A DNA stretch of 38,365 bases from Gammaproteobacteria bacterium (GTDB lineage: Bacteria > Pseudomonadota > Gammaproteobacteria > Pseudomonadales > Azotimanducaceae). Where the stretch lies: contig VXSY01000110.1 of NCBI GenBank assembly GCA_009837725.1, positions 1 to 38,365 on the forward strand, read 5' to 3'. Shown one piece after another: positions 4,533 to 35,675 of this stretch. The notes beneath the pieces were generated by a model. That model made no database searches. It was given only the letters and a program-made list of their open reading frames with translations, and was not told the origin of the DNA. Every line of letters begins with the position of its first letter. The stretch's first letter is position 1. The translations under genes and the position numbers were made by a program.

Positions 4533-5165
4533 ATGCAATCCGTCGAGTTCTTTTTCGACTGCAGCAGTCCGTGGACGTATCTCGGCTTCGAGCAGATTCA
4601 GCGCACGCTTGCGCCTGGAGTCGAGAGCGGCGCGGTGGAACTGGTGTGGCGGCCGTTCTTGGTGGGCGGCGTCTTCAATACCGTCAACCCGAGCGTGTAC
4701 GAGGGGCGGGCAAAGCCGGTGCCGGTAAAGGCACGGCACTACGCGAAGGACCTCGCCGACTGGGCCCGCTACGTCGGCATCCGCATCGGCTCGCCGCCGG
4801 TGTTCCCGGTGAACAGCGTCAAGGCGATGCGGGGGGCATTCTTTGCCGAGGAGCAGGGCCTGCTGGTGCCGTATGCGCGACGGGTGTTCGAGAGGTATTG
4901 GGGCGACTTGGCGGACGTCTCGCAGGACGACGTGCTCGAGGGGATCGTCGGCGAGGTGGGCCTGGAGGCAACCGCCTTCTTCGCGGCCATTCGCTCGGAC
5001 GGTTACAAGGCCCGCCTGCGCGCCAACACGGACGAGCTGATCGAACGCGGCGGCTACGGCTCGCCGACGATGTTCATCGACGGCAGCGACATGTACTTCG
5101 GCAACGACCGCATCCCGCTCGTGGCGCACCGGCTCGGACTGGCGCCGCCAGAGGGCGTTGGCTGA
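4533..5165 (+). CDS. 2-hydroxychromene-2-carboxylate isomerase-like, DsbA-fold protein
   Basis: 210 residues with the thioredoxin/DsbA fold of the HCCA isomerase-glutathione transferase kappa group. The N-terminal FFFDCSSPWTYLGFEQI carries the S-P-W-T-Y-L-G signature, with Ser where oxidoreductases have a CxxC. The C-terminal GSPTMFIDG provides the cis-proline loop, followed by MYFGNDRIPL, the family's F-G-N-D-R motif. Such proteins use glutathione to isomerise naphthalene-pathway or related intermediates; no aromatic pathway genes are nearby, so the true substrate is open. I start at the ATG at 4533, preceded by AAAGGGAAG, not the GTG at 4509. Confidence 0.88.
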   Translation: MQSVEFFFDCSSPWTYLGFEQIQRTLAPGVESGAVELVWRPFLVGGVFNTVNPSVYEGRAKPVPVKARHYAKDLADWARYVGIRIGSPPVFPVNSVKAMRGAFFAEEQGLLVPYARRVFERYWGDLADVSQDDVLEGIVGEVGLEATAFFAAIRSDGYKARLRANTDELIERGGYGSPTMFIDGSDMYFGNDRIPLVAHRLGLAPPEGVG

Positions 5166-5218
5166 TTGGGCAACATCTGCGCAAGTCCTCTCGAGGACAA
5201 GCCACGGCAAGTGTTTTC

Positions 5219-5860
5219 TCAGGACTCCCGTAGGCGGTCGAAAGCGCAGGGTTTGGGCGGGGTTCGTTCCGCCGCGAGGATCGACTCGGCGCATTGGCGC
5301 GGGGACATGGTGCCGGTGTTTACCTCCACGTCGTAGATGCAACCGGCATGCACGCCGTGCATGTGCAGGACGGCGGTGCCGGGGAAGCGGCCCGGGCGTT
5401 CGGTTTCGCGTTGGTTGAGGGTGGCCGCGTCGCAGTGGATGGCGGCGAATGTCACGCCGATGCCGGCTAGGGCTGCCAGGTAGTCGCTGAGGTAGTTGTG
5501 GTCGAGCCGCATGTCGTCCACCACCACGTCGTTGCCGACCTTGGCGAACGCGGCGATGGCGTGGCGCATTCCGGTGAGCATTCTTAAGCCCACGTCGCCG
5601 AAGTGGATCGCGGTGCCGGACACTTCGGGCTCGCTCGGTCCTCCCGGGGCGTGTACCGGCACTACGTTCAGGCCGCGGGCCCCCGGTGTGCCCTCCGGGG
5701 AGTTCAGGCCGCGGAACCGATCTGGCAGGCCGTCACGGAACTGGTCGAGGGCGACGTGCTGGATGGGCTCCGGGCGCAGTTGCTGGATCATCCGTGCGAC
5801 CGTCGTCTTGCCGGCGCTCGACGTGCCGTTCAAGAGAATGACGCGGCCGCAATCTCTCAC
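5219..5860 (-). CDS. P-loop kinase of the chloramphenicol phosphotransferase-like family
   Basis: About 213 residues from a GTG at 5860, which overlaps the stop of the PfkB gene (GTGA), so the two are translationally coupled. A Walker A loop lies near the start (LLNGTSSAGKTTVARMI, about 8-24). VVVDDMRLDH near 97-106 looks like the catalytic Asp/Walker B strand of CPT-like kinases. The fold phosphorylates small hydroxylated compounds; resistance to chloramphenicol should not be assumed. Coupling to a sugar/nucleoside kinase, and the divergent nucleoside transporter, suggest a salvage or modification step on a related substrate. Confidence 0.82.
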   Translation of the reverse strand: MRDCGRVILLNGTSSAGKTTVARMIQQLRPEPIQHVALDQFRDGLPDRFRGLNSPEGTPGARGLNVVPVHAPGGPSEPEVSGTAIHFGDVGLRMLTGMRHAIAAFAKVGNDVVVDDMRLDHNYLSDYLAALAGIGVTFAAIHCDAATLNQRETERPGRFPGTAVLHMHGVHAGCIYDVEVNTGTMSPRQCAESILAAERTPPKPCAFDRLRES

Positions 5861-6795
5861 CGTGCCAGCCACGCTGGCCGTTCCCCCCAGGCATTGGCGT
5901 AGCGCGCCGCGTAATCGTCGAAGGAATGCCGCTGCGGCCCCGGTGTCGTCAGGCTGATGGCCGCGGTCAGGGCGCCGGCGCGCATGGCGTCCGGCATCTC
6001 GGCGCCGCGCAGGCGCGCATCCACGAACCCGGCACGGAAGGCGTCGCCGCAACCCGTGGGGTCCGTTACGTCGTCGATTGCCACTACCGGCACCCGTCCG
6101 GCCTCGTGTCCGCGCTCGAACCAGAGGGCTCCGGCACTCCCCAACGTGACGATCAGGCAATCGAGCGTGGCGAGCGCTCCACCCACGTGGCTTTGCAACG
6201 TGCGGTGCTCGTACTCGTTGAGGATGACGCTCGAGGACAGCTCGGTCAGCCTTTCGCTGTCGCTCGGCTGGAAGTCGGTGAGCCCCTGGCCTGGGTCACA
6301 GAGGAAGGGGATGCCGAGCTCGACCATCACCCGGGCGGCATCGACCATGTTCTCCGGCACATCCGGGGCCAGCACGGCGTAGTCAAAGCCGCGCTCCGCA
6401 AACGCGCGCAGTCGCGGCAGGAAGTCGTGGCTCCGTGCCGGGCCGGGATAGAAGCCTGTGAACTGGTTCTGGTTTGCGTCGGTGATGACGAAGGCGTGCG
6501 ACGAGTGGGCTTCCTCCAGCATCGTGACGCCGCTCGTGTCCATTCCGAGCGCTCGTAGGTGGCAGGCAAAGTCCGGCTCGTAGTCGGCCCCTACGAACGC
6601 GAACGGCGACGGCTGCTGACCCAGCAGGGCAAGGCTGTAGGCGATGTTCATGGCGCAGCCGCCAAAGTCGCGCCGGATGTGGCTCAAGTGAATCGAAAGG
6701 TTGATGCCGTCATGGCGAGGCAAGCCGGCGAAGGTGCGCGGGTACTTAGCCGCGTAGTCGATGGCGAGTGTGCCGGTCACCAATATACGTGCCAT
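5857..6795 (-). CDS. PfkB family carbohydrate/nucleoside kinase
   Basis: Ribokinase-fold sugar kinase of 312 residues, starting at MARILVTGTLAIDY. It shows the first PfkB signature region (RDFGGCAMNIAYSLALLG, the glycine pair near residues 46-47) and the second signature DVTDPTGCGDAFRAGF near 245-260, which carries the anion hole and catalytic Asp. The N-terminal TGTLAIDY and the overall form resemble adenosine-kinase-like members. An upstream ATG at 6816 is possible, but the family begins with this strand. It is divergent from the NupC-type transporter at 6970 and overlaps the downstream P-loop kinase, making a likely nucleoside salvage unit. Confidence 0.9.
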   Translation of the reverse strand: MARILVTGTLAIDYAAKYPRTFAGLPRHDGINLSIHLSHIRRDFGGCAMNIAYSLALLGQQPSPFAFVGADYEPDFACHLRALGMDTSGVTMLEEAHSSHAFVITDANQNQFTGFYPGPARSHDFLPRLRAFAERGFDYAVLAPDVPENMVDAARVMVELGIPFLCDPGQGLTDFQPSDSERLTELSSSVILNEYEHRTLQSHVGGALATLDCLIVTLGSAGALWFERGHEAGRVPVVAIDDVTDPTGCGDAFRAGFVDARLRGAEMPDAMRAGALTAAISLTTPGPQRHSFDDYAARYANAWGERPAWLAR

Positions 6796-12916: not shown

Positions 12917-13345
12917 GGAACAAAAACACCCAACACGTTGATTCTTTGGCGATTCGACTCGAAGTCGAGTCAACACCAACGTGCCGGCCAAGAGCTTCGC
13001 GTCGCAGAAGGTCACGAAGGGACGTTCTGCGACGCAAAGCTCTTGGCTAGGTGGGGGCTGGGGCCAGACCCCGAGCGCAAGCGAGGGGGTTGGCGGCGCG
13101 GATGGCGCCGTGAGAAGCGCATCGGAGCGAGGGCCTGTCACGCTCCTCCCGCCGAAGGCGAAGCAACCAAAGGCCCGAAGCAGGAGCCAGCCTCCTCTCC
13201 GCGAGACGGGCCCCGTCAGACGGCGAGGTAGCCCTGTTCCCTGCCGTCTGCGGCCCGGTATCCCCACCGGGATGGGGACTTGCATGCAACAAAATGCACG
13301 GGCCTGTCGGTGGCGGGGAAGCGGCCTTGTTTCCTGCCTTCCACG
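12911..13345 (-). repeat. Dispersed repeat family 1, long copy upstream of tctC
   Basis: Read on the minus strand, this block matches the tandem copies at 35145-35598. The shared order is TTCCCCGCCACCGACAGGCC, CCCGTCTCGCG, a GCTTCGGGCC segment, CTTCGCCTTCGGCGGGAGGA, GGCCCTCGCTCCGA, GCCGGCACGTTGGTGTTGAC and CAACGTGTT. It carries an insertion absent from those copies, including a long hairpin (12986-13047) and the 53-base piece also found at 2148-2200. It occupies the whole gap between tctC and the SMP-30 gene and has no convincing gene. Confidence 0.8.
12986..13047. repeat. 23-bp inverted repeat inside the tctC-upstream repeat
   Basis: Arms at 12986-13008 and 13025-13047 pair over 23 positions with one mismatch (left arm begins GCCAAGAGCTTCGCG), around a 16-base loop. 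Next to it, GACTCGA-AG-TCGAGTC forms a second small palindrome near 12955-12970. The hairpin is absent from the copies at 35 kb, so it looks like an insertion. Confidence 0.75.
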
Positions 13346-14857: not shown

Positions 14858-15275
14858 CAAAATGCATTCACGTTGCATCTCAAAGCGTTGAAATAGGAAT
14901 CTTTTATCTACCTCCTTTTGAGCCCCCTTGAAGGGGCAAGGCACCCTCCTGTGGAGCGAACTGCAGCGCACCCTCCGAAGGAGGCTTCGCGCTAGCCGCG
15001 CCCGTCGGAGCGCGCCGGGACGGGACAAGCCCGGACCCGTACACTTCCGCGAGAGTGCCCCATCCAGAAACGACCAAGAGGCGTCACTGGCGTGCAATTG
15101 TCTGATATTCCTTACCATTATGCTACGACACCCCACGCTCGCAGACGATCAGGCGTCCTCATCGCATTGTACGTCGTCTTACCGTTTTGGTGGGAACCTT
15201 GGTTTCCGTCCCGTTTTGCGCTAGGGTGCTTCCCTCCCTGTGCGCCGCGAGGCGCATTGTACAGACGGACACGCC
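14858..15275. other. Intergenic region between core genes and the integrase
   Basis: About 420 bases without a gene. The 14925-15055 part is another patchwork of small hairpins (CCCCT-TGA-AGGGG, CCTCC-GAA-GGAGG, CGGGACAAGCCCG) with words shared with 8238-8344 (GGGACAAGCCCG). Nearer the integrase, CGCATTGTAC occurs twice, at 15163-15172 and 15253-15262, the second next to a GTGCGCC/GGCGCAT stem. I see no tRNA gene that could be the attachment site. Confidence 0.6.
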
Positions 15276-16442
15276 ATGCCCCGCATCGTCAGGAACCAGC
15301 TCTCCGCCGCCGCCGTCCGCGCCGCCGGCCCGGGCCGCTACACCGACGGCAACGGCCTGATGCTCTACGTGAAGCAGTCCGGCGCCCGCTCGTGGGTGCA
15401 GCGCCTGCGCCTGTTCGGCGAGCGGGTCGACCTGGGCCTGGGCTCCGCCGACAGGGACAGCGCCGATTACGTGAGCCTGGCGCAGGCACGCAGGACCGCG
15501 CTCGAGAACCGCCGCATGGTGCGCGACGGGGTCGATCCGCGTCGCACCCGAACGCCGAGCTTCGCCGAGGCGCAGCGCGCCGCATACGCCGAGCTGCTCC
15601 CGCAGTGGAAGGAGAGCAGCCGCTTCGCCGAGAAGTGGGTCAGCACGATGGAGCGCTACGTGCTGCCCAGGATCGGCGCGGTGCCGGTGGACCGCATCGA
15701 GGCGCGGCACGTCAAGCGCGCCCTCGCGCCCATAGCCGCCGCCGGCAAGGCCGACACGGTCCGCCGAACCGGGGGGCGCATCAGGGCGACGCTCGAATGG
15801 GCGCGCATCGAGGGACACTACGACGCGCCGGACCCGGTGGACGCCGTGGTCAGGGCGCTGCGCGTCGCGAAGGTGGAGCGCACCCGGATGGCGGCGCTTC
15901 CGCATCGCGATGTAAGTGGCGCGCTGGAAGCGGTCGAGACCGCGAAGCGCACGGTTCCCGTCACCCGCCATGCGTTCCGCTTCATGGTGCTGACGGCTGC
16001 GCGCGGCATGGAAGTGCGCAGGATGGAGTGGCGCGACGTGGATCTGGACGCCGCGACCTGGAACCGTCCGGCGGACAAGATGAAGGCCGGCAAGGCGCAC
16101 CGCGTGCCCCTCTCGCGCCAGGCGCTCGACGTTCTCGAGGCCGCGCGGGGCTTCGGCGGCGCCGCCGGCCTTGTGTTCCCGGCGCAGGGGCGTCGCGGCC
16201 AGATGCTGCCGGACAACGCGATCCGCCGGCTCGTCTCGCGGGTCTGCGACGGCGCGACGGCGCATGGCTTCCGCTCCAGCTTCCGCGACTGGGCCGGCGA
16301 GACCGGCGTCGAGCGCGAAGTCGCCGAGCTCTGTCTCGCGCACGTCGTCGGCGACTCGAACGAGCGTGCCTACGCGCGCAGCGACCTGCTGGAACGGCGC
16401 CGTCCGGTCATGCAGCGATGGGGAGACTACGTCGCGTCGTGA
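15276..16442 (+). CDS. P4-type tyrosine recombinase/integrase
   Basis: Site-specific recombinase of 388 residues that would integrate and excise the island. The N-terminal arm-binding domain (ARYTDGN-like: GPGRYTDGNGLMLYVKQSG, about 18-36) is of the DUF4102 type, the core-binding domain follows, and the C-terminal catalytic domain has LTAARGMEVRRMEW (first Arg), a Lys in the turn, HGFRSSFRDWAGE (His and second Arg), LAHVVG and AYARSDLLERRR (Tyr). All catalytic residues are present, so it appears intact. I chose the ATG at 15276; an upstream GTG at 15240 is less likely. It faces the three nuclease-like genes. Confidence 0.93.
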   Translation: MPRIVRNQLSAAAVRAAGPGRYTDGNGLMLYVKQSGARSWVQRLRLFGERVDLGLGSADRDSADYVSLAQARRTALENRRMVRDGVDPRRTRTPSFAEAQRAAYAELLPQWKESSRFAEKWVSTMERYVLPRIGAVPVDRIEARHVKRALAPIAAAGKADTVRRTGGRIRATLEWARIEGHYDAPDPVDAVVRALRVAKVERTRMAALPHRDVSGALEAVETAKRTVPVTRHAFRFMVLTAARGMEVRRMEWRDVDLDAATWNRPADKMKAGKAHRVPLSRQALDVLEAARGFGGAAGLVFPAQGRRGQMLPDNAIRRLVSRVCDGATAHGFRSSFRDWAGETGVEREVAELCLAHVVGDSNERAYARSDLLERRRPVMQRWGDYVAS

Positions 16443-16780: not shown

Positions 16781-17530
16781 ATGCCGACCCTGTTCGATGG
16801 GACATGTGGCATTGGCGACATCGTTGAAATCCTCGACCGAATGGACGCGAACTGTCCGCGGCCTTCTTCGACTTCCAAGGAGCTTTGGCGGCTTCGGTGC
16901 ACGAAGAAAGGCCGTCTTCGCGGCAACGAGACGCTCTTAGAGAGGGCCGTAGCGATGCTGGCGGACAACGACCATATACCTGGATGGTTCAATCAGTGTC
17001 CGGCAGCGTCCGGAATAGGGGACTCCTTTAGAAACAGGAGGAGGAACGTCGATCTCGTTCACTGGTGCGCCGAGGACGGTCGGTTGACGCTTGTTGAACT
17101 GAAATGGGGCCGCGGCGCCCCCACGCACGCGGTACAGCAGATTCTCCGCTATGGGGCGGCGTATTTATTGTGTCGAATGCACCGGGACAGGCTGCCCGTC
17201 GGGAATCGTCCGGTGATGTCAGCCATGCACGTTGCGCTCCGAGTCGCCGCGCCGATCCGGGACTATCGCGACGACGGCCTTCGGGACTGCCTCTTCCGGG
17301 CGCAGGAAAGCCTTGGCCGCGTTCCGGGAAGAACGGGACTGGCGGGACTGTCGATGTCGCTGGACGTACTGGCCTTCCCCGAGTGGTTCGATCACCTGCC
17401 GTTCACCGATGGCGCGGAAGTCCGCGACTCGTGTGACAGGCCGGAGTTGACGGAGGAGGGCCGCATCATCGTTGATGCCTTCGATGGCTTGGCCTTGGTA
17501 CACCTCGACCGCGATGGGACGAAGGGGTGA
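16781..17530 (+). CDS. PD-(D/E)XK nuclease-like protein, first of three
   Basis: 249 residues from the ATG at 16781; I do not recognise a named family. The nuclease core is readable: helix NETLLERAVAMLA (49-61, acidic residue E54), strand NVDLVHWC (Asp91), strand LTLVELKWG (Glu106-x-Lys108) and helix AVQQILRYGAAYLLC (117-131), which resembles the Q-x-x-x-Y helix of exonuclease-like members. The C-terminal 100 residues are unassigned. It lies 340 bases after the integrase and overlaps the next gene by GTGA. The frame is open upstream to 16586, but without a better start. Function in DNA restriction or defence is inference from fold and place. Confidence 0.72.
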   Translation: MPTLFDGTCGIGDIVEILDRMDANCPRPSSTSKELWRLRCTKKGRLRGNETLLERAVAMLADNDHIPGWFNQCPAASGIGDSFRNRRRNVDLVHWCAEDGRLTLVELKWGRGAPTHAVQQILRYGAAYLLCRMHRDRLPVGNRPVMSAMHVALRVAAPIRDYRDDGLRDCLFRAQESLGRVPGRTGLAGLSMSLDVLAFPEWFDHLPFTDGAEVRDSCDRPELTEEGRIIVDAFDGLALVHLDRDGTKG

Positions 17531-18285
17531 ACGGAAGATTCCTGCCTGGGGTGCCGGGAGCGGAGATCGAGAGAATCCTCAACGCTGCCCCCGGCAACGA
17601 GATCACCAGCGGCAAGTTTGACAGCCCCGAGTCGTCATCGGCGTTAGTCGCCAATGCGTTCGGTTTCTACCTTCACCGGGCGGTCGACCTTCCAGTGCTG
17701 CCTGGTTGCGAAGAGGAGGTCTGGCCCGCACGGTCCCTGTCTATGGAGGCCAAGCTCCGGTTTCCGTGGCGCGGCGGGCGTCATCCCTTTCTGGATTGTC
17801 TGGTGGAGACGCCATCGGCGCTTATCGGCATCGAGTCGAAGCGCTTCGAGCCGTATCGTTCCTCGCTGAGCGATGCGTTCTGGCGACCAGTCTGGGGCGA
17901 ACACATGGGTGGATACGAGGGCGTCCGGGACCGGCTACGAGACAATCCCGCCGGAGGATTCGCCCACCTGGATGCAGCGCAGTTGTTCAAGCACGCCCTA
18001 GCGCTGCGGAGCGAGGTCTATCGGCGTGAGCCGTGCAAGCTCAAGCCCATCCTGTTCTATCTCTACGCCGAGCCCGAAGTCTGGCCGAGGAACGGCGAAG
18101 CCGTCGATGAACAGGCGAAGGCCCGACATCGGGAAGAGATCGAGGCATTCGGCAAAGCCGTCGGTGATGACGAGGTGAGCTTCGTGTGGTGCCCGTGGCG
18201 CAACCTCCTTGACACGTGGGCGAGCCAACGCGACAGTCGGACTCGCGCTCACGCGCAAGCTGTGAGGGATCGATTCTTACCGTAG
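17527..18285 (+). CDS. PD-(D/E)XK nuclease-like protein, second of three
   Basis: 252 residues, starting at a GTG that overlaps the previous stop (GTGA), so it is translationally coupled. Predicted core: KFDSPESSSALVANAFGFYL (30-49, a helix after a Ser-rich turn), the strand pair around MEAKLRFPW and HPFLDCLVE (Asp90), then LIGIESKRFEPY (Glu103-x-Lys105). The SPESSSALVAN segment and this order remind me of the PGN_0703 group of putative restriction endonucleases, an assignment from memory only. The C-terminal half contains a strand FYLYAEPEVW and a helical tail. No methyltransferase or helicase gene accompanies it. Confidence 0.72.
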   Translation: MNGRFLPGVPGAEIERILNAAPGNEITSGKFDSPESSSALVANAFGFYLHRAVDLPVLPGCEEEVWPARSLSMEAKLRFPWRGGRHPFLDCLVETPSALIGIESKRFEPYRSSLSDAFWRPVWGEHMGGYEGVRDRLRDNPAGGFAHLDAAQLFKHALALRSEVYRREPCKLKPILFYLYAEPEVWPRNGEAVDEQAKARHREEIEAFGKAVGDDEVSFVWCPWRNLLDTWASQRDSRTRAHAQAVRDRFLP

Positions 18286-18354
18286 CTGGACCAACACAGG
18301 AGAGGTTGGCCAAGATCCGAGCGTACCTTGGTCATGGCGACTGGAGTGGCTGCA

Positions 18355-18942
18355 ATGTTCGATGACGCGATGGACACTATTCTCTTTGACTTCGCCGCAT
18401 TGCTGGAGACCCGCGTCGGTCACGACGTTTGGACTACGGAAGATTCGGTACGGTACACGCTGTTTGCCGCCATGTTGCGCAACATGGTGGAGGCCCACGA
18501 GGTGATCCAGGAGTTCCCGCATCGCTTGCTTGGTGGAGAGAAGAGGGTCGATACATGGATGCCAGACTTCCACGGGAAGGACGTTGCCGTCGAGTTCAAG
18601 TACGACCCAGATTCGCGCAGCGGCGCGACCCTAAACGAGACGCAAAGAGCAGGGGCCGTATTCGAGGATTTGCGTCGGCTGCAACTCCTTAGTGACGACG
18701 CCGTTTGCTATTTCGTGTATGTCACGATGAAGGGGATGGACCGCCATTTCCACAATCGTCATAGGGAACTGTATGGGCTGGTGCAGGGAGAGTCCTTTGA
18801 GATAAGGCGAAGCTACTTCGCCGACAAGCCACGGACCTTCATGGGCAAAGTTGACGGCGTGTTCGAGGCGACCGTTACTTGCGTAGTGAACCAGCGCTTC
18901 TTGGATCACAACCTTAGGGTTTACAACATCGCAAAGGCATGA
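18355..18942 (+). CDS. PD-(D/E)XK nuclease-like protein, third of three
   Basis: 195 residues from the ATG at 18355, preceded by GGAG; an ATG at 18334 is also possible. Predicted core: TTEDSVRYTLFAAML (27-41, acidic Glu29), KRVDTWMPDF (Asp66), VAVEFKYDPDS (Glu80-x-Lys82), then a helix with NETQRAGAVFEDLRRLQLL, a pattern I associate with small uncharacterised nuclease-fold proteins. It is unlike the two upstream proteins beyond the core motifs. It lies 69 bases downstream of the second gene in the same direction. The end of the gene is 35 bases from an inverted integrase relic. Confidence 0.72.
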   Translation: MFDDAMDTILFDFAALLETRVGHDVWTTEDSVRYTLFAAMLRNMVEAHEVIQEFPHRLLGGEKRVDTWMPDFHGKDVAVEFKYDPDSRSGATLNETQRAGAVFEDLRRLQLLSDDAVCYFVYVTMKGMDRHFHNRHRELYGLVQGESFEIRRSYFADKPRTFMGKVDGVFEATVTCVVNQRFLDHNLRVYNIAKA

Positions 18943-18976: not shown

Positions 18977-19057
18977 TCATGGTTGGCCCGTCAAGTAGTC
19001 GGCCCAATGCTGCATGAGGGTCCGGCGGCGCTCGAACAGATCGCTACGCCGGTGCCC
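18977..19057 (-). pseudogene. C-terminal relic of a second P4-type integrase
   Basis: Minus-strand codons read RRSDLFERRRTLMQHWADY before a stop at 18977. They match the C-terminus of the intact integrase (RSDLLERRRPVMQRWGDY). The residue at the catalytic tyrosine position is His (GHRRSD), and nothing upstream on this strand continues the homology. The remnant is inverted relative to the intact integrase, and the three nuclease-like genes lie between the two. Confidence 0.75.
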
Positions 19058-19365
19058 GAACCGAGCGCCGCCTACTGGAGTCCGCTCCCAGACCCGGAGC
19101 CGCGCGAGGAATGCGAGTGGGCGAAGTCGATCCACGACGACGGTCGCAGGTTCCATCGCCACTGATCCCGCTCTCCCGCCGGGGCGAGCGGCTCCGCAGT
19201 CGCGCGCCCGGTTCATCAACCCATCGGGAACCGAACCATGGACGACAGTCGCCACAGCCGGCCCGAGTCGATCGACGACCGGATGGAGCGGCTGGAGATC
19301 GAGGGTACATGGAGCGTCGGGTGCGTTCGCCCTCCCGCAGGATCGCCGCACCTGGCCGAACAGCG

Positions 19366-20228
19366 CTATCCGCAGTACCGACGCACGATCTCCAGGCGTC
19401 CGTGGCCGAGCTCGCGGGAGATCCGCAGCCGCGCGGCGGCGTCGATGCGCCGCTCCCCCTCCCCAGCTCGCTCCGCGCCGGCCCGCCCGCCGCCGGAGCC
19501 TTCCAGCCCGTCAGGCCCTCGTACCGGTCCAGCGCGTAGGCGTGCCGCAGCCCGTGGCTGCGGTCCAGCCCCGCCGCCCGGGTCTGGGCCTCGTACACCC
19601 TGCGCTGCTCCGCGTAGTTGCGCCCCGGCGGGATCAGCGCACCGCCGCCCGCCAGACCGCGCGCCTCGTCGAGCAGCCGGCGCTGGGCAGCCGTCCGCAC
19701 CGGCACCTCGCGCGGCCGGCCGCCCTTGGCCGTCGACGCCTTCACCGCGATCCGGTCGCCGCGGTCGGCATGGGACGGCGAAAACTTGATGGCCTCCTCG
19801 CGGCGCAGCCCGAACGCCGCCTGCAGCCGCAGCGCCATGCGCACGTGATCGTCCCTCACCTGCGCCAGCCTCTCCGCGTCCAGGTCGCGCCGCCTCGTGC
19901 CGTCGGAGACGTGGCTGCGCGGGCGCATGCCGTAGTCGGCGTTCGGCATCACCATGCCCGACTTGCCGACGCGCTCGGCCCACCAGCGCAGGTGCGCCAT
20001 GCGGTTCATCATGGTGGCGTCGGACAGGCCGCCGTCGCGCCAGTGGCGCACCAGCGCCTCGACGTGCCTCGGCTTCAGCCCCTCGGCGCGCAGGCCGCGG
20101 TGGCCGAGGTCGTGCAGCGCGTTCGCCATCTGCGCCAGCGCGTACGAGCGGTCGTGGCGGGTGCCGTGGGAGCCGGCCTCGCCGGAGCGACGCTGGAGCT
20201 GCAGCAGGTCCCAGTTCAGGTCCCGCAC
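19366..20228 (-). pseudogene. Integrase of the Integrase_1/SAM-like family, frameshifted
   Basis: A second recombinase family, starting at a GTG (20228; protein begins RDLNWDLLQLQRR). The SAM-like N-terminal domain runs to about residue 90 (GLSDATMMNRMAHLRWWAE), followed by the catalytic domain with AAFGLRREEAIKF (first Arg), HGLRHAYALDRYE (His-x-x-Arg) and LTGWKAPAAGGP. Near 19455-19480 the homology moves to another frame, which finishes with LRISRELGHGRLEIVRRYCG (last His and Tyr) and stops at 19366. All catalytic residues exist across the two frames, so one indel disables it, unless it is a sequencing error. Such integrases are common on integrative elements. Confidence 0.8.
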
Positions 20229-20539
20229 GGAGACCCGACGCCGTAGCTCGCGTTGTCCTTCCGGACGATGCCCGGCTTGCCGATCCTGCGCGCCAGCCAG
20301 CGCAGGTGCGCAAGGCGGTTCTTCACCGTTCCGTCCGACAGCCCCTGCCGGCGCCACTCCGCCACCAGCGCGTCGACGTGCCGGCCCTTGAACCCGCGCG
20401 CCCTCAGGCCCCGGTAGCCGAGGCCGTGCAGGGTCTCCGCCGCCTGCGCCAGCGCGAAGCGCCGGGCGCGGCGCGTGGCGTGCGAGCCGCGTCGGTCGTC
20501 CTCCAGCAGCCGCAGCAGGTCGAAGTGCAGTTGGCGCAT
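20216..20539 (-). pseudogene. N-terminal domain of a paralogous Integrase_1-type recombinase, truncated
   Basis: 107 residues from the ATG at 20539 (MRQLHFDLLRLLEDDRRGSH) that align along their whole length with the N-terminus of the following integrase: GYRGLRARGFKGRHVDALV against GHRGLRAEGLKPRHVEALV, and GLSDGTVKNRLAHLRWLA against GLSDATMMNRMAHLRWWA. It stops at 20216, thirteen bases inside the next gene, with no catalytic domain. It looks like one of two tandem paralogues cut off by a deletion joining it to its neighbour. It might still bind DNA, but I treat it as a remnant. Confidence 0.75.
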
Positions 20540-20569
20540 CGTTGCCGATCTCCACCCCGTGGGGTGCAA

Positions 20570-21472
20570 TGTCCGGCTCGAAGCTAGAGAGGGCGTCCGC
20601 CGGCGTCAACGACGGCGTGCTCACCGGATCGGTAAGCGCCGCCTGCCAGAACGGCAGGGACGGCAGGCATCGCCGAAGGGCAGCTCAAGTCGTGGGGGCC
20701 TCGAATGACCGCGGCGTCGGCGCGTCGGACGCGCCCCGCGGCCGCGCGGGCGCGGCCGGGAGCGAGTGTGGTTCGTTCAGTTCTGATGGGCGACCCGGCA
20801 CCCGTCAGGGTGTCCGGACCCCGCACCTTCGTGCGGAAATGCCCGTCGACGCGTCTTCCCTCGCCGTCTCCTGCGGCGGCCGCGGCGTGTCCTGCGACAA
20901 CTGGCCCGCCAGCCCTTCGGCACGCGCCGCGCCGCGCGGAGCCATTCGGCATGACGGAGTTCTCCGTCCCGCGCGATGCGTCGCACCACGTCCAGGTTCG
21001 CCGCACCGGTTTCCCGGCGGTGCGCGTCTCCGCGCCATGCGGCCTCTCCTGCCGTCGGTGGTTCGCCCCTGTCCGCGCGCTACCGCGAACATGGCGGACC
21101 GTGCCTTGCGATGCGTCGACCGCCAAATGCTGCGCCTGCAGCTCGGCACATTGCGCCGCCGTTCGGCGACGCCGTCATGCAGGGCTCTCCGGCCCTGCCA
21201 TGTCGCGCGATGGCGACAGATTGACGCCGGGCACTCTAGCACCGCATCACCACGCCGGCACCAGCTTTCTTCTTACCGGAGCGCTTGCCGCCGCTGGCCC
21301 GAACCCCGCATCTGCGCCCCGTCACTACCGGAACTCCGCCGCCGCCTAGAGGCGCCGGCGGAGGTAGTGACGGGGCGCAACATGCGGTCCGTCGCCACAA
21401 TGCTCCATTACTGGGCCTCAGTCACTTCGTAACCACCTGCGAGGCACGCTGCTGCTTGGCATTCGCGACACG
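20570..21472. other. About 900 bases with no supported gene
   Basis: Very G+C-rich sequence that is open in several frames on both strands, none with recognisable motifs or a good ribosome site. Amino acid content (Arg/Ala/Pro runs) is typical of spurious frames. The only distinct structure is the long hairpin at 21313-21379. Confidence 0.6.
21313..21379. repeat. Strong 67-base hairpin
   Basis: TGCGCCCCGTCACTACC at 21313-21329 pairs perfectly with 21363-21379. Inside, after a GGAA bulge, CTCCGCCGCCGCC pairs with GGCGCCGGCGGAG with one mismatch around a TAGA loop. The stem is about 29 bp. No T-tract follows. It stands between the integrase relics and the next gene, and could be an attachment or transfer site, a structured RNA or the scar of an element. 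Confidence 0.8.
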
Positions 21473-35144: not shown

Positions 35145-35343
35145 GGCGGCTTCCCCGCCACCGACATGGCCCGTCTCGCGGGGAGGGGGCTGGTTGCAGC
35201 TTCCGGCCCTTGGTTTCTTCGCCTTCGGCGGGAGGAGCGTGATGGGCCCTCGCTCCGAAAGGCGTGTGGGACCGCGCCGTCCGGCCGGCACGTTGGTGTT
35301 GATTCCGCTTCGAGGCATATTGTTGGTTTTTCAACGTGTTGCG
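35145..35343 (+). repeat. Dispersed repeat family 1, tandem copy A
   Basis: About 199 bases nearly identical to 35400-35598, at a period of 255 bases. Conserved words are CCCGTCTCGCGGGGAGGGGG, CTTCGCCTTCGGCGGGAGGA, GCGTGATGGGCCCTCGCTCC, GCCGGCACGTTGGTGTTG and TTTTTCAACGTGTTGCG. It is followed by GTTCCATGGAA, the same string that holds the tctC start at 12911-12920. Confidence 0.88.
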
Positions 35344-35399
35344 GGATTCGTTCCATGGAAGTTTCCACCGGGGGGAGGCCGGGCCGGACGCCAGGAAAC

Positions 35400-35598
35400 A
35401 GGGCGCCTCCCCGCCGCCGACAGGCCCGTCTCGCGGGGAGGGGGCTGGTTGCAGCTTCCGGCCCTTGATTTCTTCGCCTTCGGCGGGAGGAGCGTGATGG
35501 GCCCTCGCTCCGAAAGGCGTGTGGGACCGCGCCGTCCGGCCGGCACGTTGGTGTTGACTCCGCTTCGAGGCACATTGGCGGTTTTTCAACGTGTTGCG
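35400..35598 (+). repeat. Dispersed repeat family 1, tandem copy B
   Basis: The second unit of the tandem pair, differing from copy A at a few bases (for example GATTTC for GGTTTC, TTGACT for TTGATT). It ends 78 bases before the start of the acyl-CoA dehydrogenase gene and has the same orientation toward that gene as the long copy has toward tctC. TTGACT could act as a -35 box, but no convincing -10 follows. Confidence 0.88.
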
Positions 35599-35675
35599 CA
35601 TTTTGTGCCATGCATGGGAATGCGCCCTGCCTTCCCTCGAAAGGGCCCAGCGACGATAGCCTTTACAATTGCGGC

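What the first reader, a model, noticed from the sequence alone, without database searches (positions are those of the whole stretch)
16781..18942. Three consecutive, unrelated PD-(D/E)XK-like genes on an integrase island: candidate undescribed defence system
Seen: three same-strand genes directly after an intact P4-type integrase, the first two overlapping by GTGA and the third 69 bases on, each with its own acidic helix, Asp and E-x-K core (D91/E106-x-K108; D90/E103-x-K105; D66/E80-x-K82). Known: the PD-(D/E)XK fold is the usual restriction endonuclease fold, and P4-type integrase islands often carry defence cargo. Inferred: the three act together. What is odd is the absence of any methyltransferase, helicase, ATPase or specificity gene; either self/non-self choice is made differently, or two of the three are regulatory or inactive relatives.
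Basis: partly seen in the sequence, partly recalled or inferred. Interest (0 to 1): 0.82.

Follow-up and report, generated by a model that had tools for sequence, protein, structure and literature searches.

The report
Two-nuclease defence-like gene pair
Two overlapping genes that encode unrelated, predicted DNA-cutting enzymes travel together between distant bacteria, sometimes fused into one protein, and look like a small undescribed anti-invader module; the third gene of the reported trio is a separate neighbour.

Summary
In detail: three same-strand genes follow a P4-type integrase, with the stated GTGA overlap, 69-base gap and D...ExK residues. The trio reading is only partly right. P1 (16781-17530) and P2 (17527-18285) form a unit: P1 lies directly upstream of P2, or fused to it, in 10 of 80 P2 loci fetched and in 7 of 9 P1-bearing genomes. 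Two genomes carry natural fusions, the two proteins' divergences correlate (Mantel r 0.92), and active-site residues are invariant or nearly so. The two P1 copies without P2 have decayed. P3 does not belong to it: its relatives (two more genomes of the genus, one fragment elsewhere) do not adjoin P1 or P2. P2's family is not unknown: its relatives match Pfam REase-ARP (PF22558) and elsewhere sit in McrBC operons or beside ADP-ribosylglycohydrolase-phosphatase, AIPR, GmrSD or AbiEii genes. P1 matched no library used. Fold matches are consistent with PD-(D/E)XK but weak; P3 was not folded. Best reading: a two-subunit PD-(D/E)XK endonuclease module with no methyltransferase found beside it, probably anti-invader; how it tells self from non-self is unknown. 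The P1-P2 architecture was not found in the papers searched. No activity is shown.

The parts
15240..16442 (+). P4-type tyrosine integrase, full length, directly upstream of the pair
   Evidence: (three Pfam domains above cut-off); a C-terminal remnant of a close relative (86.8% DNA identity) lies in the same contig stretch as the fused P1-P2 gene in G1082
16781..17530 (+). P1: PD-(D/E)XK-like protein, first subunit; E50, E54, D91, E106, K108 invariant in 11 of 11
17527..18285 (+). P2: PD-(D/E)XK-like protein of the REase-ARP (PF22558) family, second subunit; D90, E103, K105
18355..18942 (+). P3: separate PD-(D/E)XK-like ORF (motif only), G+C 55.3% against 65.9% for the window; adjacent but not part of the conserved unit
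19044..20624 (-). Integrase_1 / Phage_int_SAM_2 recombinase ORF, overlapped by a second ORF (20216-20569, minus) with the same N-terminal domain; far side of the island
   Evidence: similar recombinase near fused P1-P2 in G1082 (L122) and near P3 in G002 (L017)

Best explanation
P1 and P2 are the two subunits of a compact, mobile PD-(D/E)XK endonuclease module. Shown: translational overlap in the window, conserved order, natural fusions, correlated divergence, near-invariant active-site residues, defence-rich contexts of P2's wider family. Inferred: the two proteins assemble and each supplies one active site, so that the complex makes double-strand breaks, much as heterodimeric restriction endonucleases do. 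Because no methyltransferase was found beside the pair in relatives, self/non-self choice is inferred to come from recognising something on invader DNA (a modified base, as in Type IV restriction) or from triggered activation that also damages the host. P2, which in most fetched loci occurs without P1, is the effector that can work alone or with other partners; P1, found so far intact only with P2, depends on it. P3 is a separate neighbour in the island.
For: P1 directly upstream of or fused to P2 in 10 of 80 P2 loci and every P1 match in those 80 loci is that neighbour; P2 start within -8 to +19 bases of the P1 stop in the 9 unfused intact pairs measured, window included. P1-led searches: 9 distinct genomes with P1, P2 adjacent in 7. 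Four of the 9 (G000, G048, G764, G765) were rows of the query alignment; of the 5 others, 3 (G003, G907, G1082) have P2 adjacent. Fusions: G048/L041 and G1082. Mantel r 0.92 between P1 and P2 distances over 12 pairs, 0 of 10000 permutations as high. The two P1 copies without P2 anywhere in the genome (G844, G1007) are decayed: D91 replaced by Y in G844, reading frame split in G1007. Window P1 and P2 are closer to a Bryobacterales MAG (58/66%) than to the fused proteins of their own family (38-42/59-61%), which suggests transfer as a pair. P2 family contexts: McrC in 8 of 80 loci, ADP-ribosylglycohydrolase-phosphatase in 7 of 80, AIPR, GmrSD_N and AbiEii in single loci. AlphaFold2: P1 pLDDT 80, P2 pLDDT 95; Foldseek best PDB matches are BamHI (P1) and McrBC chains (P2).
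Against: Foldseek matches are weak: 0 at E <= 0.001 in each of three searches, and P1's PDB list is mixed with unrelated folds. Among neighbours of the 10 P1-P2 loci defence genes are few: 9 PADLOC models matched in 59 ORFs at E <= 1e-8, and several pairs sit between metabolic genes. P2 lies near trigger factor in 10 of 80 loci, which looks like stable chromosomal inheritance. Eight of the 10 P1-P2 loci are from MAGs, so contig assignment may err. In L044 the P2 frame is split, and in G003 both genes are broken, so the module is lost at times. No biochemical or phage data.
Confidence: 0.6

Rival explanations
1. Effector plus regulator: P2 is the nuclease and P1, though PD-(D/E)XK-like, is a specificity, sensor or antitoxin-like partner whose own catalysis is not needed.
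For: In most fetched loci P2 occurs without a detectable P1 (70 of 80), so P2 can act without it; P1 always comes first where paired; G139 (L022) and L036 have a different upstream ORF with a D...ExK-like stretch, by eye and without any Pfam match, as if the partner were exchangeable.
Against: P1's E50, E54, D91, E106, K108 are invariant in 11 of 11 aligned copies, and the catalytic Asp is lost in a copy without P2.
Confidence: 0.25
2. All three genes form one system, as first proposed.
For: Same strand, close spacing; all three in one integrase-bounded stretch.
Against: P3 relatives occur without P1/P2 (G002, G012) and the P1-P2 pair occurs without P3; P3 has a lower G+C (55.3% against 61.9% and 62.8%).
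Confidence: 0.05
3. A DNA-repair, housekeeping or selfish-element function rather than defence.
For: P2 near trigger factor in 10 of 80 loci and within a valine-degradation-like operon in G413 (identified by eye); P1-P2 pairs often inserted between metabolic genes.
Against: Patchy presence (P2 in 4 of 349 genomes of the phylum; P1 in 1 of 349), apparent transfer between phyla, defence neighbours of other P2 copies.
Confidence: 0.1

Closest known systems
REase-ARP family (Pfam PF22558) and the ADP-ribosylglycohydrolase (ARG)-centred systems of PMC9503650 (section 3.8 read)
   Same: P2's relatives match the profile (73 of 76 at E <= 1); [quoted passage not shown] That this REase and PF22558 are the same is my inference; the paper's supplement was not readable.
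   Different: The P1-P2 loci have no such ARG gene; the described systems have regulators, phosphatases and chaperones, none of which I saw here; a second PD-(D/E)XK partner or fusion is not mentioned in that section.
McrBC Type IV restriction
   Same: P2 relatives are encoded between an AAA ATPase gene and mcrC in 5 of 80 loci, with McrC further off in 3 more; P2's best PDB Foldseek matches are chains of McrBC entries.
   Different: The window's P1-P2 unit shows no AAA/GTPase gene between or next to its genes; Foldseek E-values are only 0.008-0.017.
Heterodimeric Type II endonucleases (BbvCI, BspD6I, BtsI; abstracts seen in the listing)
   Same: Two different subunits, each with (or contributing to) one catalytic site, in adjacent genes or complexes; BspD6I chains appear in P2's Foldseek list.
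   Different: No methyltransferase found beside the pair in relatives; no sequence relation tested or seen; recognition site unknown.

Membership tests
PD-(D/E)XK nuclease superfamily (P1, P2) | Conserved D...(E/D)xK on a mixed alpha/beta core | tested here: met
   Residues. Core order helix-strand-strand-helix-strand in the models. Foldseek support is consistent but weak: P1 best BamHI E 0.064 prob 0.28; P2 best McrBC chain E 0.0077 prob 0.75; 12 of the top 50 viral matches of P1 bear nuclease or restriction names.
PD-(D/E)XK nuclease superfamily (P3) | D...ExK on the same core fold | tested here: inconclusive
   D75, E89, K91 kept in 3 of 3 relatives; no library match; no structure was predicted, both jobs having gone to P1 and P2.
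REase-ARP (PF22558) | Profile match above the curated cut-off (27 bits) | tested here: inconclusive
   Window P2 itself: no match even at E <= 10. Relatives: 73 of 76 at E <= 1; 7 of 8 scanned one by one above 27 bits (29.4-52.9), L026 below at 21.4. L053, 64% identical to window P2, scores 30.9 bits. So a diverged member by relationship, not by direct score.
ARG-centred system | ADP-ribosylglycohydrolase gene in the neighbourhood | tested here: not met
   No homologue of the L081 ARG-phosphatase in the window or in the 10 P1-P2 loci; the genome's own ARG genes lie on other contigs than the window's C237.
McrBC | McrB-type ATPase and McrC in the same unit | tested here: not met
   McrC_L078 and AAA_L078 queries hit neither the window nor any of the 10 P1-P2 loci.
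Type II restriction-modification, heterodimeric (Type IIT) | Cognate DNA methyltransferase(s) | tested here: inconclusive
   None of 9 PADLOC models matched in 59 neighbour ORFs of the 10 loci is named a methyltransferase, but what the mad2/mad3/mad8 models stand for was not looked up, the Pfam scan showed 25 of 75 families, gene calls were crude, and the whole window was not scanned.
Type II restriction-modification, heterodimeric (Type IIT) | Two subunits that assemble, one catalytic site each | not testable with these tools
   No complex prediction was available; fusions and motifs are indirect support.

The most novel reading that the evidence does not exclude
A minimal, methyltransferase-free restriction module made of two unrelated PD-(D/E)XK proteins that work as one heteromeric (repeatedly fused) enzyme, spread between distant phyla, with discrimination built into the nuclease pair itself and with P2 as an exchangeable nuclease that McrBC, ARG-phosphatase and P1 systems each recruit.
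Probability: 0.4. Interest if true: 0.7.

Novelty: new variant of a known kind. Interest (0 to 1): 0.5.

Why it matters
It gives a catalogued but uncharacterised nuclease family (REase-ARP) a specific, testable partner, and a very small candidate defence module (about 1.5 kb) in which two active sites from unrelated families would have to cooperate without a methyltransferase, helicase or ATPase. It also shows one nuclease family moving between McrBC operons, ARG-phosphatase systems and a two-nuclease unit.

Tried and rejected
Library look-ups of P1, P2, P3 in Pfam, NCBIfam, PADLOC and PDB sequences gave nothing relevant. Plasmid and phage collections: P2 in 3 plasmids and 1 phage record, P3 in neither, P1 in no plasmid (P1 was not searched in the phage collection); P1 of L063 in no plasmid. 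Five viral-contig scans found no relative of P1, P2 or P3. Aligning P1-only and P2-only proteins to the fused protein failed, the P1 rows landing on the P2 part, so P1 and P2 were folded apart and the fused protein was not. P3 was not folded. The trio as one system was rejected for lack of co-occurrence. ARG-system membership of the window pair was rejected. Paper searches for PGN_0703 with restriction endonuclease, REase-ARP, PF22558 and a two-nuclease defence phrase set returned 0 papers each; other listings were. Of PMC9503650 I saw passages and the whole of section 3.8; of PMC11090510 passages only; other papers as listings. Preprints and most subscription papers are not in that library.

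Full report
Observation. The window (G+C 65.9%) holds a complete P4-type integrase at 15240-16442, then three plus-strand ORFs: P1 16781-17530, P2 17527-18285 (GTGA overlap) and P3 18355-18942 (69 bases on). The quoted residues are present. As a motif this is little: D-x(8-20)-E-x-K appears in 90 of 460 control genes, and a stricter form in 31 of 460. Conservation in relatives is the real evidence: P1 11 of 11 for D91, E106, K108; P2 76 of 76, 75 of 76 and 75 of 76 for D90, E103, K105 (the exception is L100); P3 3 of 3.

What the proteins are. P1, P2 and P3 matched no Pfam, NCBIfam, PADLOC or PDB sequence family of relevance. They are not related to each other by profile comparison (hhalign probabilities 0.2%, 1.2%, 0.1%), although the short segments aligned for P1-P2 and P3-P1 bring the D and ExK columns together. 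AlphaFold2 gives P1 a mean pLDDT of 80 from 11 rows (low at residues 27-44 and 75-86) and P2 95 from 76 rows. Foldseek against PDB: P1's best is BamHI (E 0.064, probability 0.28), in a list that also holds unrelated folds; P2's best three are chains of McrBC entries (E 0.0077-0.017, probability 0.57-0.91), with AF1548, BspD6I and Can2 further down. That those McrBC chains are McrC is my inference. P1 against viral models: 12 of the top 50 carry nuclease or restriction names, best E 0.0031. None of the three searches has a match at E <= 0.001. P3 was not folded.

P2's family. Window P2 itself scores nothing in Pfam, but 73 of the 76 sequences in alignment A7 match PF22558 REase-ARP at E <= 1, and 7 of 8 scanned singly are above its 27-bit cut-off, L026 being below. 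A genome scan with the P2 alignment found 225 relatives, of which the best 80 were kept (L026-L105); some are near-duplicates. Contexts among these 80, by BLAST with chosen neighbours: P1 adjacent or fused 10; McrC 8 (5 directly downstream, 3 about 5 kb off); ADP-ribosylglycohydrolase-phosphatase 7 (6 downstream, 1 upstream on the other strand); trigger factor nearby 10; WYL regulator 11 (one distant and weak). Pfam confirmed McrC in L078 and L088, the ARG-phosphatase in L081, AIPR in L097, GmrSD_N in L092, AbiEii in L087 and WYL in L058. In L078 the order is AAA ATPase, P2 relative, McrC, WYL, and a helicase that matches PADLOC DruE models. On a Qipengyuania plasmid the P2 relative precedes HEPN and DUF3883 genes. 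A window-like integrase lies in 4 of the 80 loci (L033, L074, L077, L087); in L033 it is next to the P1-P2 pair.

P1 and P2 are a unit. In 10 of 80 loci P1 is directly upstream of P2 or fused to it, and no P1 match in the 80 lies elsewhere. By record title these are Bryobacterales (two), Desulfurellaceae, Nitrospira, Gammaproteobacteria (three), Sphingobium, Erythrobacteraceae and Phenylobacterium; eight of the ten are MAGs. P2's start lies between -8 and +19 bases from P1's stop in the nine unfused pairs measured, window included. In L044 the P2 frame is split. P1-led searches, free of the bias of starting from P2, covered 97, 349, 246 and 200 genomes (the sets overlap) and gave nine distinct genomes. 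Seven have P2 adjacent: G000, G003 (both genes broken), G048 and G1082 (both fused, 623- and 608-residue open frames), G764, G765, G907. G000, G048, G764 and G765 were themselves rows of the query, so the independent score is 3 of 5. The two without P2 anywhere (G844, G1007) carry decayed P1: Asp91 replaced by Tyr, and a split frame; G844's copy is also cut by a contig end. Pairwise distances of P1 and P2 over 12 pairs (L044 dropped because its P2 is split) correlate at r 0.92, 0 of 10000 permutations as high; shared ancestry is not corrected for, and L063 and L065 are near-identical. Window P1/P2 are nearer to a Bryobacterales pair (58/66%) than to the fused proteins of its own family (38-42/59-61%), as expected if the pair moves as one.

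The island. In G1082, of another genus of the same family, the fused gene lies between a remnant of an integrase 86.8% identical in DNA to the window's and a recombinase like that at window 19044-20624. The window's far side holds that Integrase_1-type recombinase ORF, overlapped by a second ORF with the same N-terminal domain.

P3. P3 relatives: 3 of 97 and 3 of 200 genomes, the same three (G000, G002, G012); 1 of 321 in the class, the own genome; and a 68-residue fragment on another contig in 1 of 23 P2-bearing genomes. P1-bearing and P3-bearing genomes of the family overlap only in the window's own. In G002, P3 is followed by a recombinase like the one beside P3 here, so P3 looks like separate cargo of the same kind of element.

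Mechanism. Best supported: P1 and P2 assemble into one endonuclease with two PD-(D/E)XK sites. Order, overlap, fusion and correlated divergence are shown; assembly, cutting and defence are inferred. About 0.9 for a conserved two-gene unit, 0.7 for anti-invader function, 0.5 for a two-active-site heteromer, 0.3 for modified-DNA recognition. No ARG, McrB or McrC homologue lies with the P1-P2 pairs, and none of 9 PADLOC models found in 59 neighbour ORFs is named a methyltransferase. I did not scan the whole window for methyltransferases.

Against. Defence genes around the ten pairs are few, several pairs sit among metabolic genes, P2 sits stably near trigger factor in 10 of 80 loci, and the fold matches are weak.

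Known and new. [quoted passage not shown] P2's family is therefore described; P1, the P1-P2 pairing and the fusions were not found in section 3.8 or in the searches named. I rate it a new variant of a known kind.

Noticed in passing
L078 4675-11035 (also L088, L089, L093, L094): A P2 relative is encoded between an AAA ATPase gene and mcrC with overlapping ends, followed by a WYL regulator: a McrBC-like operon with an extra PD-(D/E)XK gene.
   Followed up: partly
L022 9632-10627 (minus) and L036 6912-7982: Other ORFs directly upstream of P2 relatives carry a D...ExK-like stretch (by eye) but have no Pfam match: possibly alternative partners in place of P1.
   Followed up: partly
L013 about 5000-5920, L074 2051-2914, L077 955-1890: A gene directly upstream of P2 relatives, annotated phosphoribosyltransferase in L013, near P4-type integrases in Sphingomonadales.
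   Followed up: no
L122 13337-15000: Beside the fused P1-P2 island of G1082 lies an ATPase gene followed by an ORF that by eye resembles RloB (recalled, not tested).
   Followed up: no
window 35149-35357, 35405-35612, inverted at 13122-13293: About 209-base direct repeat (94%) with a more diverged inverted relative (80%) near 13.1 kb.
   Followed up: no
window 18977-19040, minus: By eye, a remnant of the C-terminal end of a second P4-type integrase (no Pfam match for the ORF), in inverted orientation to the intact one.
   Followed up: partly
window 19951-20175 and 20265-20489: 74% direct repeat inside the recombinase region: two related recombinase N-terminal parts in tandem.
   Followed up: no
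L014 4436-5509 (MT836914.1): A phage-labelled human faecal contig encodes a REase-ARP protein (52.9 bits), 24% identical to P2.
   Followed up: no
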